Below, piece by piece: positions 53,001-57,600 of a stretch of 64,000 bases of DNA (its first letter is position 1; every line of letters begins with the position of its first letter). This DNA comes from Salvelinus alpinus. Its lineage: Eukaryota; Chordata; Actinopteri; Salmoniformes; Salmonidae. Location of the stretch: contig NC_092094.1 of NCBI RefSeq assembly GCF_045679555.1, positions 30,974,052-31,038,051 on the forward strand, given 5' to 3'. A program made the position numbers and the translations under genes. The notes beneath the pieces were generated by a model, which was not told where the DNA came from, did no database searches, and saw only the letters and a list, made by a program, of their open reading frames with translations.

Positions 53001-53776
53001 TGTGTGTGTGTGTGTGTGTGTGTGTGTGTCAGTGAGCTGTCATGTCTCCAGTGTGTGAAACCAGTAGAAGGAGGGAGGTTCCTGCAAGAACACTATTCCA
53101 GTCTAGCAGTGTGCAAGGGGGTTATTGGTGTGTGTGACCAGCTTGCTCTATTCCGGTGAATAGAACCTCAGAGCTATGGCATTTCACTGACATTCACTAC
53201 AGCATCATTCATTCTACTTAGCAAGGCTAGTGTTACCACACACACACACACACACAAACGTGCACACACCTACCTACAAACACACACACACCTACACACT
53301 GCACGCACACAAACCTACACACACCTACAAACACACACACACCTACACACTGCACGCACATAAACCTACACACACCTACAAAGACCTACACACCGAACGC
53401 ACACACACACAGGGTGGGAGATAATAAACATTATCAGCAGAGGGCAGCAGCAGAACAGACCCAATGTTTCCTCAGAGCACACCACTATCAGTTCGGCTGT
53501 AACACATCTCACCGGTCTTGTTGGTGTTGATTATGCGGCTGACCGGTGGGCTGAGGTTGGAGGAGGAGGCGGCGGTCACCATGACCGTAAACGCTGTTCG
53601 AGGACTCAGACTGGATACGTCAGCCTGAGGAGAGACTGCACGATCAGAACATGACCACAACCACAACACAACTACAGTATGTGGTTGTAGATGTGTGTGT
53701 GTGTGTGGAGCAGTCTAACCTGTGCGTGTGTGTATCCCAGGTAGAAGGTGATGATCAGGAGAAGAGTGATGGCCAT
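23001..53776 (-). CDS. ptprq: ptprq, receptor-type phosphatase Q, complete short form, 47 coding exons
   Basis: The gene encodes a type I membrane protein of the R3 receptor phosphatase group. PTPRQ is known as a phosphatidylinositol phosphatase needed for shaft connectors and hair-bundle maturation in inner-ear hair cells. From the start at 53776 (ATG with A at -3 and G at +4): signal peptide, many FN3 domains, a Ser/Thr/Pro spacer, transmembrane helix (26722-26821), juxtamembrane segment, one PTP domain (25152-23133) and tail EETTM with stop 23001-23003. Every junction found is GT/AG and in phase. Recognition rests on family-specific strings such as [34 protein letters not shown] and [13 protein letters not shown]. 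No frameshift or nonsense codon was seen, so the gene looks functional. Introns hold numerous microsatellites and transposon relics. Confidence 0.96.
23133..25152 (-). CDS. ptprq: ptprq phosphatase-domain exons
   Basis: Exons 25062-25152, 24911-24987, 24044-24178, 23836-23961, 23425-23706 and 23133-23256. Landmarks in order: [16 protein letters not shown]; the substrate-recognition loop [55 protein letters not shown]; the mobile loop as WPEHGVP (23656-23664) instead of the usual WPD; and the catalytic P-loop [11 protein letters not shown] (about 23544-23573), with the nucleophilic Cys and the Arg intact. The Q-loop region is MCMVQN. The WPE loop is characteristic of PTPRQ and goes with weak protein-tyrosine but good phosphoinositide phosphatase activity. 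Confidence 0.95.
24283..24683. repeat. Dispersed fish repeat (SINE-like) in ptprq intron
   Basis: Sequence with 'tcatatccaattggtagt', 'tctcatcgctgcacctcccc', 'acggactcgggag', 'gctgggccaattgtgcgcc' and 'gtctcccggtcacagccgg' blocks, known to me as a common repeat of salmonid genomes. No coding potential. It lies in the intron between ptprq exons 24044-24178 and 24911-24987. Confidence 0.55.
24788..24900. repeat. (TG)n microsatellite, 10 bp from a ptprq 5' splice site
   Basis: About 56 TG units. In transcript sense this is a CA repeat starting 10 nt after the donor of exon 24911-24987. Confidence 0.96.
25274..26821 (-). CDS. ptprq: ptprq transmembrane and juxtamembrane exons
   Basis: Exon 26722-26821 encodes the membrane span [20 protein letters not shown], followed by a basic stop-transfer. 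Exons 26488-26616 ([20 protein letters not shown]), 25951-25995 ([15 protein letters not shown]), 25479-25505 and 25274-25355 follow. The 25479-25505 exon is a 27-nt microexon (LLSYRKSLK). They link the membrane to the PTP domain with the wedge-like helix [23 protein letters not shown]. Splice phases rebuild [11 protein letters not shown] exactly. Confidence 0.92.
25708..25938. mobile_element. MITE with complete inverted ends
   Basis: 231 bp with inverted ends TACAGATGTAGGATCTT / AAGATCCTACATCTGTA. AT-rich and non-coding. Second copy of the family at 11198. It ends 13 bp from the ptprq exon 25951-25995. Confidence 0.85.
26067..26222. repeat. (TG)n microsatellite
   Basis: About 78 TG units, one of the longest uninterrupted dinucleotide tracts here. 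It lies in the ptprq intron 25996-26487, which also holds the (CA)n tract 26380-26483. Confidence 0.96.
26380..26483. repeat. (CA)n microsatellite adjoining a ptprq donor
   Basis: About 52 CA units on the plus strand. In transcript sense a TG repeat begins 4-5 nt after the donor of exon 26488-26616. Together with 26067-26222 it could form an inverted CA/TG pair within one 491-nt intron. Confidence 0.95.
26937..29333 (-). CDS. ptprq: ptprq membrane-proximal ectodomain exons
   Basis: Exons 29264-29333, 27630-27788, 27182-27485 and 26937-27010. They close the last FN3 domain ([22 protein letters not shown]) and form the membrane-proximal module ([89 protein letters not shown]) typical of R3 receptors. 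In human PTPRQ the same stretch reads PLKPKKQYLFKFRATN. The fish exon 27182-27485 carries an extra basic/His-rich loop ([20 protein letters not shown]). Confidence 0.9.
27052..27154. repeat. (TG)n microsatellite
   Basis: About 51 TG units in the intron between ptprq exons 26937-27010 and 27182-27485 (171 nt in all). The repeat therefore makes up most of that intron. Confidence 0.95.
27977..29033. mobile_element. Fold-back derivative of a Tc1-like element
   Basis: Left end CAGTGGAAGTCAGAAGTTTA, right end TTTCCGACTTCAACTG then TA. The left half runs in plus orientation through the 5' UTR and the N-terminal half of transposase. Near 28800 it turns over: 28806-28896 is the reverse complement of the stretch around 28770-28796 plus adjacent transposase sequence, followed by an inverted copy of the outer left end (28897-29033). 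Confidence 0.75.
28332..28796 (+). pseudogene. Tc1-like transposase N-terminal fragment
   Basis: Starts [19 protein letters not shown] and continues through the helix-turn-helix region. An in-frame stop (TGA at 28645-28647) interrupts it, with further homology to about 28796 (WRNVLWS region frameshifted). The C-terminal catalytic part is absent from this copy. Confidence 0.85.
29425..29582 (+). repeat. LINE ORF2 C-terminal fragment
   Basis: Reads [20 protein letters not shown], a C-x2-C..H zinc-finger-like tail seen at the C-terminus of fish LINE ORF2 proteins. About 150 bp only, in the ptprq intron 29334-30555. Confidence 0.6.
29640..30545. repeat. 'gtagttgtgacctgtgtgtgt' minisatellite with embedded (TG)n
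   Basis: About 35 units of 18-24 bp, a core 'gtagttg(tgacc/agtcc)tgtg' plus a variable TG run, with two pure TG expansions (about 30122-30207 and 30332-30416). It ends about 10 bp from the donor of ptprq exon 30556-30797. Open frames rich in His/Thr or Cys/Val across it are artefacts. Confidence 0.92.
30556..33738 (-). CDS. ptprq: ptprq distal FN3 exons
   Basis: Exons 33463-33738, 33191-33342, 32817-32958, 32433-32708, 32105-32322, 31816-31978, 31609-31727, 30904-31090 and 30556-30797. They encode about six FN3 domains ([117 protein letters not shown]). The order and the atypical [12 protein letters not shown] domain match human PTPRQ. The intron 31091-31608 contains a solo LTR. Confidence 0.9.
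31117..31555. mobile_element. Solo LTR
   Basis: 439 bp starting TGTTAGG and ending CCAACA, so the ends are short inverted repeats TGTT..AACA. It is flanked by the 4-bp direct repeat GTAG (31113-31116 and 31556-31559), the expected trace of integrase. Inside are 'tttatatacta' (TATA-like, about 31490) and 'ataataaac'. There is no coding region: a single LTR left after recombination of an LTR retroelement. Family not identified. Confidence 0.75.
32383..32424. repeat. (TG)n microsatellite near a ptprq donor
   Basis: 21 TG units. In transcript sense CA repeats start 8 nt after the donor of exon 32433-32708. Confidence 0.92.
33063..33182. repeat. (GAGT)n tetranucleotide repeat
   Basis: About 24 GTGA/GAGT units plus a TG end. 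It occupies the middle of the ptprq intron between exons 32817-32958 and 33191-33342 and stops 8 bp before the donor of the latter. Confidence 0.95.
33841..38989 (-). CDS. ptprq: ptprq central FN3 exons
   Basis: Exons 38828-38989, 38570-38749, 38212-38319, 37737-38018, 37547-37655, 37292-37464, 36673-36793, 36362-36516, 36079-36224, 35771-35939 and 33841-34191. They encode about six FN3 domains with the recurrent pattern VSWxPPxxPNGxIxxYxLY..(V)xGLxxYTxYxxxVxASTxxGxG, e.g. [77 protein letters not shown] and [19 protein letters not shown]. Several Asn-X-Ser/Thr sites are present. FN3 boundaries use phase-1 introns. A splice-site duplication lies next to 38319 and another next to 36079 (findings). 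Confidence 0.9.
34192..35770. other. ptprq intron, 1.6 kb
   Basis: No gene or recognised transposon. Contains a degenerate 'gagaaactttgttt' repeat at about 34530-34610 and a 57-unit (TG)n tract at 35651-35763 that reaches to within 8 bp of the donor of exon 35771-35939. Confidence 0.7.
35651..35763. repeat. (TG)n microsatellite at a ptprq donor
   Basis: In transcript sense the donor gtcagt runs directly into the CA repeat. Confidence 0.96.
36012..36070 (-). pseudogene. Decayed duplicate of a ptprq exon end with its donor
   Basis: A 58-bp-shifted, diverged copy of 36072-36128 (3' end of exon 36079-36224 plus its gtgagt donor). Both copies read 'actcacctg..ta..acag...tattgtctg.gtagta'. Using the copy as donor would extend the exon by 58 nt and run into an in-frame stop (TAA at about 36037). 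Confidence 0.65.
37142..37271. repeat. (TG)n microsatellite near a ptprq donor
   Basis: About 65 TG units starting about 20 nt after the donor of exon 37292-37464 in transcript sense. Confidence 0.96.
38083..38203. repeat. (TG)n microsatellite near a ptprq donor
   Basis: About 60 TG units. CA in transcript sense starts 8 nt after the donor of exon 38212-38319. Confidence 0.96.
38295..38478. repeat. Four 46-bp tandem copies containing a ptprq splice acceptor
   Basis: The unit contains, in transcript sense, 'ctgcttgctgtgtgtttcag' plus the first 25 nt of exon 38212-38319. Copy starts are at 38295, 38341, 38387 and 38433 on the plus strand, with an exact 46-bp period and nearly no divergence. 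The functional exon uses the copy ending at 38319. Confidence 0.95.
39114..39290 (+). repeat. Retroelement 3' end fragment
   Basis: Contains 'ggaccccaggaagagtagct' and 'ctaatggtgatcctaataaa' with the end 'ataccaaat', a frequent LINE 3' terminus in teleosts. Non-coding; in the ptprq intron 38990-39517. Confidence 0.6.
39518..40285 (-). CDS. ptprq: ptprq FN3 half-domain plus Ser/Thr/Pro-rich mucin-like spacer
   Basis: Exon 40122-40285 codes the first half of an FN3 domain ([23 protein letters not shown]). Exon 39518-40049 (532 nt) starts [20 protein letters not shown] and then runs for about 150 residues rich in Ser, Thr and Pro ([28 protein letters not shown]), a likely O-glycosylated stalk. 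Human PTPRQ has a shorter unstructured insert at the same place. The motif LRRKRS at the spacer start fits a furin-type cleavage consensus (R-X-K/R-R). The exon is in frame with both neighbours, so it is coding. Confidence 0.85.
40286..42165. repeat. (CAGA)n followed by a 14-bp minisatellite, 1.88 kb
   Basis: 40290-40386 is (CAGA)n. The rest is about 125 copies of 'agacagacagtatc' with the last positions varying between tatcag, tatccg, tattag and tataag. It lies in the ptprq intron between exons 40122-40285 and 42308-42454. There are no unique spacers, so it is a minisatellite and not a spacer array. Confidence 0.96.
42308..53624 (-). CDS. ptprq: ptprq N-terminal FN3 exons
   Basis: Exons 53513-53624, 52529-52637, 52229-52343, 44638-44707, 44354-44553, 43828-44065, 42581-42709 and 42308-42454. 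They encode the second half of a first FN3 domain ([18 protein letters not shown]..), then two to three complete FN3 domains, each commonly split over two exons. Visible strand motifs are [63 protein letters not shown] and [11 protein letters not shown]. The long insert between 44354 (..GALPHCN) and 43828 (DAADILSRG..) is also present in mammalian PTPRQ. The 7.5-kb intron 44708-52228 is a transposon graveyard. Confidence 0.9.
42730..43530. repeat. 'gaacagatagagagagatggagagatag' minisatellite
   Basis: About 28 copies of a roughly 28-bp purine-rich unit with indels, in the ptprq intron 42710-43827. The long minus-strand open frames (Leu/Ser/Ile/Pro-rich) come from the repeat and one of them runs into the true exon at 42581-42709. 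Confidence 0.93.
43539..43792. mobile_element. MITE with ATCCCACTG ends
   Basis: 254 bp between ATCCCACTGG and CCAGTGGGAT, AT-rich, with internal complementarity ('ttgaatcaaagttg', 'gacgttgaac'). It has the appearance of a fish hAT-type MITE and sits directly after the minisatellite. Confidence 0.65.
44880..45075 (+). repeat. 5S-rRNA-related SINE fragment
   Basis: The stretch 'gaagctaagcaaggttgggc..ggattggaggtcag' matches the promoter part of 5S rRNA (GAAGCTAAGCAGGGTCGGGC..). It is followed by 'ctgtagagagtgccatcctt' as in a widespread fish SINE. Not a functional 5S gene. Confidence 0.65.
45246..46457 (+). mobile_element. LINE derivative (RNase-H clade), ORF1 joined to 3' UTR
   Basis: Gag-like ORF1 in two frames: 45284-45670 and 45799-46224 (ends [24 protein letters not shown]). 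The CCHC knuckles expected between the two parts are missing through a deletion near 45790. The sequence then passes straight into a 3' region ending 'gtctgccaataaaccttgaa' plus (GAA)n at 46442-46457, with no reverse transcriptase between. It lies in the ptprq intron 44708-52228. Confidence 0.7.
46490..48500 (+). mobile_element. LINE (RNase-H clade), 5'-truncated ORF2 3' part
   Basis: Contains an RNase-H-like segment ([22 protein letters not shown], about 46855-46925) and the ORF2 end: [23 protein letters not shown] (47310-47397) continuing as [20 protein letters not shown] (48257-48320) across an 851-bp insertion. The tail is (GAA)n at about 48492-48503. Frames are broken by many stops. Confidence 0.7.
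47398..48248. mobile_element. hAT-like non-autonomous insertion in the LINE
   Basis: Interrupts the conserved zinc-finger codons CD|YC of the LINE. Flanked by GGTGTGAT / GATGTGAT (7 of 8 bp), the target size of hAT elements. Ends CAGGACCGGTCC and (reversed) CACGGCCGGCCC match at 9 of 12 positions. No transposase is seen. Confidence 0.6.
48505..48800. repeat. (AGC/AGT)n trinucleotide repeat
   Basis: About 100 triplets, mostly AGC with AGT interspersed, starting directly at the (GAA)n tail of the LINE at 46490-48500. It is open in most frames (Ser, Ala, Val or, on the minus strand, Leu/Cys runs), but there is no sign of a gene. Confidence 0.93.
49055..50660 (-). mobile_element. Tc1-like element (second family) inside the LINE derivative
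   Basis: TA on both sides (49053-49054, 50661-50662). Inverted ends CAGTGCGTTCGGAAAGTATT / AATACTTTCCGAATGGATTG, 1.6 kb. Transposase remains on the minus strand. Confidence 0.93.
49269..50351 (-). pseudogene. Tc1-like transposase pseudogene (second family)
   Basis: N-terminal part 50351-50007: [58 protein letters not shown], a typical paired-like DNA-binding region. C-terminal part 49463-49269: [31 protein letters not shown], where NPIEHL holds the catalytic Glu. The middle with the two Asp residues is frameshifted or deleted. Confidence 0.85.
51422..52228. other. ptprq intron part without recognised gene
   Basis: Contains four 11-bp copies of 'tattggtata' at about 51702-51745 and a GC-richer stretch with 'gctagctaacg'. 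Nothing coding is supported. Confidence 0.6.
52887..53030. repeat. (TATG)n / (TG)n compound microsatellite
   Basis: About 13 TATG units, then TATGAGTG and TG runs. In the ptprq intron 52638-53512. Confidence 0.95.
53235..53412. repeat. CA-rich minisatellite
   Basis: Runs of CA separated by 'cctacaaacacacacacacc' and 'ctacacactgcacgcac' units, each repeated two to three times. In the same ptprq intron. Confidence 0.85.
53720..53776 (-). CDS. ptprq: ptprq signal-peptide exon (start codon)
   Basis: Encodes [19 protein letters not shown]: a hydrophobic core of about 12 residues with a likely cleavage after THA or nearby. The donor is CAG|gttaga, phase 0. The start context (CAGCATGG) is strong. 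Human PTPRQ starts with an equivalent short signal peptide followed, as here, by half an FN3 domain. See the finding on a longer form. Confidence 0.88.

Positions 53777-57600: not shown

What the first reader, a model, noticed from the sequence alone, without database searches (positions are those of the whole stretch)
53513..54844. ptprq exon 2 completes an FN3 domain begun by an exon upstream of the ptprq start codon
Seen: the ptprq short form starts with a signal peptide (53720-53776) followed by only the C-terminal half of an FN3 domain (53513-53624). Exon 54684-54844, 0.9 kb further upstream on the same strand, codes the N-terminal half of an FN3 domain and ends CAG|gtaaat in phase 0. Exon 53513-53624 starts GCT GAC in phase 0. 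Joining them gives one well-formed FN3 domain without loss of frame. Ten further FN3 exons extend upstream past the window. Inference: a long ptprq transcript adds at least eight FN3 domains and skips the signal exon, and the known short N-terminus is an alternative first exon that cuts a domain in two. Alternative: the upstream exons belong to a truncated R3-type paralogue.
Basis: partly seen in the sequence, partly recalled or inferred. Interest (0 to 1): 0.78.

Follow-up and report, generated by a model that had tools for sequence, protein, structure and literature searches.

The report
Long, lectin-bearing form of PTPRQ
The fish hearing gene ptprq carries 17 extra leading exons whose last one joins exactly to the first shared exon of the usual short form, giving a much longer receptor with a lectin-like domain near its tip; predicted proteins show it from fishes to dogs, although the papers found describe only the shorter make-up.

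Summary
Exon 54684-54844 leaves in phase 0 at a GT donor; exon 53513-53624 enters in phase 0 after an AG. They code complementary parts of one FN3 domain (Pfam 19.6 bits for the first, 13.6 for signal exon plus second, 34.3 joined). The upstream exons are not a truncated paralogue: 17 coding exons run in one frame from a signal peptide to the junction, and a database protein of this same gene, P0001 (3394 aa), contains that chain and continues to the PTP domain. Of 266 proteins collected (isoforms included; found with the upstream part, so long forms are favoured), 257 span the joined domain and 228 also carry the lectin and PTP domains. The extension adds a C-type lectin domain and about ten FN3 units with PTPRB-type loops. 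The signal exon 53720-53776 lies in the intron that the long form removes. In the duplicate copy on C15, 14 of 17 long exons are damaged while the signal exon and body stay open. Best reading: two alternative first exons; the short one cuts a domain in two. No RNA evidence was available; ten paper searches showed no description of the long form.

The parts
63534..64000 (-). Exon A of the long form (two FN3 domains; continues outside the window to 64142; coding exons U6 to U1 lie further upstream on the same contig, U1 at continued coordinate 66667)
   Evidence: AG/GT ends and frame; part of P0001; Pfam fn3 69.8 bits, 2 stretches
63066..63329 (-). Exon B, one FN3 domain, intron phases 1:1
62645..62938 (-). 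Exon C, one FN3 domain, phases 1:1
60786..60916 (-). Exon D1, N-half of an FN3 domain (1:0:1)
58948..59077 (-). Exon D2, C-half of the same FN3
58583..58736 (-). Exon E1, N-half of an FN3 domain (1:2:1)
58368..58474 (-). Exon E2, C-half of the same FN3
57913..58013 (-). Exon F1, N-half of an FN3 domain (1:0:1)
55556..55721 (-). Exon F2, C-half of the same FN3
55026..55286 (-). Exon G, one FN3 domain, phases 1:1
54684..54844 (-). Exon H: N-half of the split FN3 domain; donor CAG|gtaaat in phase 0, joined to 53624 in the long form
   Evidence: with its run-on into the intron Pfam fn3 profile 3-48, 19.6 bits, under the family cut-off of 25; same junction in P0001 after residue 1141
53720..53776 (-). 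Exon S: signal-peptide coding part of the proposed alternative first exon of the short form, inside the H-Q2 intron; phase 0 donor
   Evidence: open in the C15 duplicate as MGLTLLLLITYLGYTHSQ with GT donor; S-like stretches at the junction of predicted proteins P0079, P0100, P0122
53513..53624 (-). Exon Q2: first exon shared by both forms; C-half of the split FN3 domain
   Evidence: S+Q2 matches Pfam fn3 profile 48-82, 13.6 bits, under the cut-off; 35 of 37 residues identical in C15
23004..52637 (-). ptprq body shared by both forms (further FN3s, membrane segment read by eye, PTP domain): 42 of the 60 exon segments mapped from P0001
   Evidence: Pfam Y_phosphatase 258.2 bits

Best explanation
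ptprq in this fish is one gene with two alternative first exons. The long form starts at exon U1, about 1.9 kb past the end of an otogl-like gene. It splices 17 coding exons (signal peptide, an unassigned N-terminal domain, a weak FN3-like unit, a C-type lectin domain, then FN3 after FN3) and joins exon 54684-54844 to 53513-53624, removing the short form's signal exon with the intron. The result is a receptor of about 3390 residues with one FN3 array down to the membrane and the PTP domain (shown as sequence and as conserved gene model; the splicing itself is inferred). The short form starts inside that intron at signal exon 53720-53776 and joins the same exon 53513-53624, so it opens with the last part of a broken FN3 domain (the exon is shown as sequence; its transcription is inferred). 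Both forms share the membrane anchor and phosphatase; they differ in ectodomain length and in the lectin domain. On hair cells this would set the reach and the partners of the PTPRQ shaft connectors (inferred). The papers I saw describe the shorter make-up, which fits reference proteins of human and rodents being short (recalled).
For: Continuous frame with AG/GT ends through 17 exons into ptprq. P0001, the window's own database protein (longest contig 87499367, the length of C9), contains it and maps to 60 exon segments, 3387 of 3394 residues. Joined FN3 34.3 bits over profile 3-82 of 84; gar, zebrafish and dog joined domains 52.3, 48.0 and 40.2 bits. Of 266 proteins, 257 span the joined domain, 243 have the lectin domain above 40 bits, 255 the PTP above 100 bits, 228 all three. 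Of the 46 proteins new in the dog search, whose query stopped short of the junction, 46 span it and 43 reach the PTP. Same make-up in gar, paddlefish, reedfish, caecilians, axolotl, frogs, turtles, lizards, birds, a marsupial, dog, cow, sheep, whales, bats. S exon: phase 0 like H; open in the C15 duplicate although 14 of the 17 upstream exons there carry a stop or a frame-shifting gap; S-like stretches in Aplochiton, Dissostichus and Conger proteins. C9: no stop in 1141 upstream codons. C9-C15 dN/dS 0.44 over 736 upstream codons that could be aligned and 0.21 over 2214 body codons.
Against: No transcript was seen; database models are mostly automatic predictions, and predictors may join adjacent exons too readily (alligator P0133 even joins otogl-like domains to PTPRQ). 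All three protein searches used the upstream part, so they could not count short-form proteins or show which form is commoner. The upstream half evolves faster than the body: 431 of 1090 identical to zebrafish upstream against 1390 of 2131 in the body; 339 of 1075 against 1004 of 2053 to dog. Upstream FN3 loops are of the PTPRB type, not the type published for PTPRQ. Lake trout P0006 lacks about 295 upstream residues and sockeye P0119 begins at exon E1 and is scrambled at the junction. No primate, rodent, lagomorph or horse is among the 120 listed of 270 hits of the dog search; no shark, coelacanth or lungfish is among the listed hits. S plus Q2 of C15 matches no Pfam family at E up to 1. Some predicted proteins carry an S-like stretch as an internal piece instead of a start.
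Confidence: 0.84

Rival explanations
1. The upstream exons belong to a separate, truncated R3-type gene (a paralogue lying head-to-tail before ptprq) that makes a secreted lectin-FN3 protein ending after exon 54684-54844.
For: Upstream FN3s have short PTPRB-type B-C loops (W4G4Y-type 4 times upstream, 0 in the body). The frame of exon H runs on 15 codons into the intron before a stop, so a truncated product is thinkable. In C15 the upstream half decayed apart from the body.
Against: I see no membrane or PTP exons in the 1.06 kb between 54684 and 53624; the last FN3 would be left half-built; 228 of 266 proteins carry lectin, joined domain and PTP in one chain.
Confidence: 0.03
2. Only the long form is real in fish; the signal exon 53720-53776 is an ATG-bearing stretch of intron, and the human-like short form arose elsewhere.
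For: 257 of 266 collected models span the junction without it (the searches favour long forms); no fish transcript seen; the exon is only 19 codons.
Against: It stays open in C9 and C15 with a whole-codon deletion and GT donors, while 14 of 17 long exons of C15 are damaged; similar signal stretches at the same junction in Aplochiton, Dissostichus and Conger proteins; without it the open C15 body would lack a signal peptide.
Confidence: 0.1
3. The long upstream exons are a decaying relic in salmonids that predictors still join but cells no longer use.
For: The C15 copy is broken; lake trout and sockeye records lack parts; upstream identity across species is lower than the body's.
Against: On C9 17 exons are open with AG/GT ends; window against coho upstream 1097 of 1141 identical, body 2063 of 2101.
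Confidence: 0.03

Closest known systems
PTPRQ, short reference form (human, mouse, rat; about 2300 residues, recalled)
   Same: Same body and PTP domain; same shared exon after a short signal exon (human ...SETQ then VDVSN..., recalled; the dog long form reads ...GGGEYQ then VDVSNAVPG).
   Different: The short form lacks the lectin domain and about ten FN3 units and begins inside an FN3 domain; PMC10815196 (passages read) gives 18 FN3 for PTPRQ and describes R3 ectodomains as formed solely of FN3.
PTPRB (VE-PTP)
   Same: Upstream FN3s share its W4G4Y B-C loop spacing (PMC5336234 section 13; count).
   Different: R3 ectodomains, PTPRB included, are described as FN3 only (PMC10815196 passages); the upstream exons mix intron codes 1:1, 1:0:1 and 1:2:1, while PTPRB is described as mostly 1:1 (section 14).
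C-type lectin domains without a canonical sugar site
   Same: Pfam Lectin_C 31.5, 36.5 and 45.4 bits in window, gar and dog; 125 distinct PDB sequences at E up to 0.001.
   Different: In 10 of 10 aligned species (read by eye) the places where classical members have their calcium-binding EPN/QPD and WND motifs (names recalled) read otherwise, so classical sugar binding is not expected.

Membership tests
PTPRQ (R3 receptor phosphatase) | Single intracellular PTP domain with WPE in place of WPD | tested here: met
   P0001 has one Y_phosphatase match and reads SWPEHGVPE; WPE as the PTPRQ mark from PMC5336234 section 12 (passage)
PTPRQ (R3 receptor phosphatase) | FN3 repeats with W7G4Y or W7G3Y B-C loops | tested here: met
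   Body: 12 matches in the window protein, 12-16 in ten species; upstream part: 0 in all ten (F or H allowed for Y). Met for the body, not for the extension
PTPRQ (R3 receptor phosphatase) | Mixed intron codes in FN3 domains (1:1, 1:0:1, 1:1:1, 1:2:1) | tested here: met
   Upstream exons show three of the four (1:1, 1:0:1, 1:2:1); description in PMC5336234 section 14
PTPRQ (R3 receptor phosphatase) | Ectodomain made solely of FN3 domains | tested here: not met
   Lectin_C in the long form. The rule is stated in PMC10815196 from mammalian proteins; I read it as a gap in that description, since the rest of the protein is PTPRQ
PTPRQ (R3 receptor phosphatase) | Lipid phosphatase activity and hair-bundle location | not testable with these tools
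   No biochemical or expression data here
   None seen between 54684 and 53624 (by eye); the chain continues into ptprq
Sugar-binding C-type lectin | EPN/QPD and WND calcium site | tested here: not met
   Alignment of 10 species, read by eye; motif definition recalled

The most novel reading that the evidence does not exclude
PTPRQ is a two-promoter gene. Its short form, the one the papers describe, begins at the border between two FN3 arrays of different loop type and leaves a half domain at its tip. The full form carries a lectin-type domain on a longer stalk, so the two forms make shaft connectors of different length and partner choice. Salmonid duplicates have split the forms between them (C9 long and short, C15 short only), and some mammals, perhaps primates and rodents, have lost the long one.
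Probability: 0.35. Interest if true: 0.8.

Novelty: new variant of a known kind. Interest (0 to 1): 0.6.

Why it matters
PTPRQ is a deafness gene, and whether its main task is structural or enzymatic is still called unclear (PMC9900141, passages). If the full protein has a lectin domain and about ten more FN3 units in many vertebrates, domain maps, antibodies, constructs and variant screens built on the short form miss about a third of it (1141 of 3394 residues here). Three isoforms on chick hair cells are reported (PMC4065360 citing Nayak 2011, passage); I could not read that source, and the long and short forms offer a direct, testable basis. The salmonid duplicates are a natural experiment: one copy appears able to make only the short form.

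Tried and rejected
Truncated-paralogue reading: rejected by the single-chain proteins. Well-formedness of the joined FN3 as proof: rejected as weak after the wrong-pair control. A decayed copy of exon E2 lies in the intron after H (54571-54700) in both duplicates; I considered it as the true partner of H and rejected it: the C9 copy has an in-frame stop and a gap, the C15 copy changes frame, E2 needs a phase 2 partner, and P0001 does not use it. 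Loss of the long form in primates and rodents: no such record among the 120 listed of 270 hits, but no horse either; clustering at 90% and annotation gaps cannot be excluded, so it stays an inference. Ten paper searches listed no paper that I could see to describe the long form; I judged by titles, abstract starts and passages, and the library lacks most subscription papers; Schraders 2010 and Nayak 2011 are not held. Passages of PMC7907461 and PMC4281357 did not mention it either.

Full report
What is there. On the minus strand the window holds ptprq from 23004 up to its edge, and the contig (C9 of a 2.37 Gb genome) continues it. Reading upstream, 17 exons stay in one frame from MRLPGFPMDG... 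at continued coordinate 66667 to 54684; all internal ends are AG and GT, and U1 was begun at its ATG. An otogl-like gene ends before it, its stop codon at about 68541 in continued coordinates (read; name from my reading of the sequence and from the otogl-like domains joined to PTPRQ in alligator P0133).

Domains. Pfam finds a C-type lectin domain in exons U5 and U6 (36 bits) and fn3 in exons A to G, two stretches in each of the four pieces given (E-value limit 10). U4 is a weak fn3 (11.3 bits, under the cut-off of 25). Exon H with its run-on matches fn3 profile positions 3-48 (19.6 bits), signal exon plus Q2 positions 48-82 (13.6 bits), both under the cut-off; the joined piece covers 3-82 of 84 with 34.3 bits. 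A control with wrong partners shows that FN3 halves of this gene often join tolerably, so this alone proves little. In whole proteins Pfam counts 18 fn3 stretches in P0001, 20 in dog and 23 in gar at E up to 0.001.

The decisive evidence. The homolog search with the spliced chain listed 120 of 221 hits, teleosts by their first names (several records, the window's own among them, carry no name). The first, P0001, lies on a contig of C9's length and contains my exon chain, H-Q2 junction included; 3387 of its 3394 residues map to 60 exon segments of this gene. A tarpon query (120 of 154 listed) brought gar, bowfin, paddlefish, reedfish, caecilians, axolotl, frogs, turtles, alligator, lizards, birds, and mammals such as cow, sheep, dog, whales and bats. 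A dog query (120 of 270 listed) added camel, pig, cat and Tasmanian devil. Over all 266 proteins (isoforms included), 257 span the joined FN3 domain, 243 have the lectin domain, 255 the PTP, 228 all three. Nine do not span it: P0062, P0063, P0076, P0079, P0100, P0117, P0119, P0122, P0129. In three of them (P0079, P0100, P0122) a signal-like stretch sits at the junction, which I read as the S exon put in by a predictor. The searches used the upstream part and so favour long forms; they say nothing on how common short-form proteins are. They do test the junction: the dog query ended before it, and 46 of 46 proteins new in that search cross it, 43 with a PTP domain and 36 with the lectin domain. 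The dog junction ...GGGEYQ/VDVSNAVPG shows that the half domain at the human N-terminus (recalled) is the same cut. Not among the listed hits: sharks, coelacanth, lungfish, primates, rodents, rabbits, horse.

The short form. S (53720-53776) lies in the H-Q2 intron with a phase 0 donor. The duplicate locus on C15 tells what selection keeps. There the body is open: 2214 codons compared, dN/dS 0.21, no stop, 39 of 2253 residues without a match. The upstream half is broken: of 17 exons, 12 have frame-shifting gaps, U1 and D1 each have a stop (U1 also lacks a GT), and only U2, U6 and F2 are free of such damage; exons Q2-Q5 have none (gap placement in B, C and E1 is rough). Exon A has two stops. 402 of 1141 upstream residues found no match, and the 736 codons that could be aligned give dN/dS 0.44 (the aligned part is the better kept part). 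Yet S on C15 reads MGLTLLLLITYLGYTHSQ with one codon deleted and its GT donor in place. This fits a copy that lives on the short form.

Two arrays. Counting B-C loop spacings as in PMC5336234 (sections 13 and 14 read), ten species from window and zebrafish to dog all show W4G4Y-type loops 3-5 times upstream of the junction and never after it, and W7G3-4Y-type loops 12-16 times after it and never before (the pattern allows F or H for Y). The extension therefore looks PTPRB-like in its loops while its intron codes are mixed as described for PTPRQ. From what I read, that paper did not include the extension.

How it works. Best reading: two first exons, one shared body. The long form gives an FN3 rod ending in a lectin-type domain near the tip; the short form gives a shorter rod with a loose half domain at its end. 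The lectin domain lacks the classical calcium-site motifs in 10 of 10 aligned species (by eye), so I expect protein rather than classical sugar binding (inference). Different lengths could set the spacing of stereocilia. Chick hair cells are reported to have three Ptprq isoforms (PMC4065360 passage), and I recall from the abstract of Nayak 2011, which I could not read here, that isoform and connector length go together.

Against it. No RNA was seen. The upstream half evolves faster than the body (to gar 402 of 1102 identical upstream, 1324 of 2160 in the body; gar to dog 439 of 1087 and 1136 of 2061). Lake trout P0006 and sockeye P0119 lack parts of the upstream half, whether by gene decay or by assembly I cannot tell.

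What is known. The long protein is in sequence databases, mostly named PTPRQ, apparently by automatic annotation. In print I found the FN3-only description: PMC10815196 (passages), PMC9900141 (passages, six to seventeen FNIII repeats for the group), PMC5336234 (outline, passages, sections 11, 13, 14). The searches are listed under Tried and rejected; absence from this library is not absence from print. Hence: real, an ordinary gene model for fish in databases, but a variant of PTPRQ that the papers I could see do not describe.

Noticed in passing
window 54571-54700: A decayed copy of exon E2 and its flank lies in the intron just after exon H, in this copy and in the C15 duplicate, so it is older than the split of the two.
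   Followed up: partly
L003 1-2740 (C9, beyond the window edge): First coding exon, an unassigned N-terminal domain and the C-type lectin exons of long ptprq, about 1.9 kb after the end of an otogl-like gene.
   Followed up: yes
P0133 (alligator, 5721 aa): A database protein joins otogl-like domains (VWD, TIL) to PTPRQ in one chain, probably a predictor run-on between two adjacent genes, or read-through transcription.
   Followed up: no
window 1328-9926: About 8.6 kb of pyrimidine-rich repeat that stays open in the plus-strand frames for hundreds to thousands of codons.
   Followed up: no
window 11310-11696, + strand: An open frame with a Sec7/ARF-GEF-like stretch ([20 protein letters not shown]), probably an exon of a neighbouring gene; assignment recalled, not tested.
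   Followed up: no
window 59100-60660, 61000-62580, 18821-20240, 15309-16549: Tc1-like elements sit in the D1-D2 and C-D1 introns of the long form; another Tc1-like element and a reverse-transcriptase-like frame lie downstream of ptprq; read by eye.
   Followed up: no
listing: No primate, rodent, lagomorph or horse protein among the 120 listed of 270 hits for the dog long N-terminus.
   Followed up: partly
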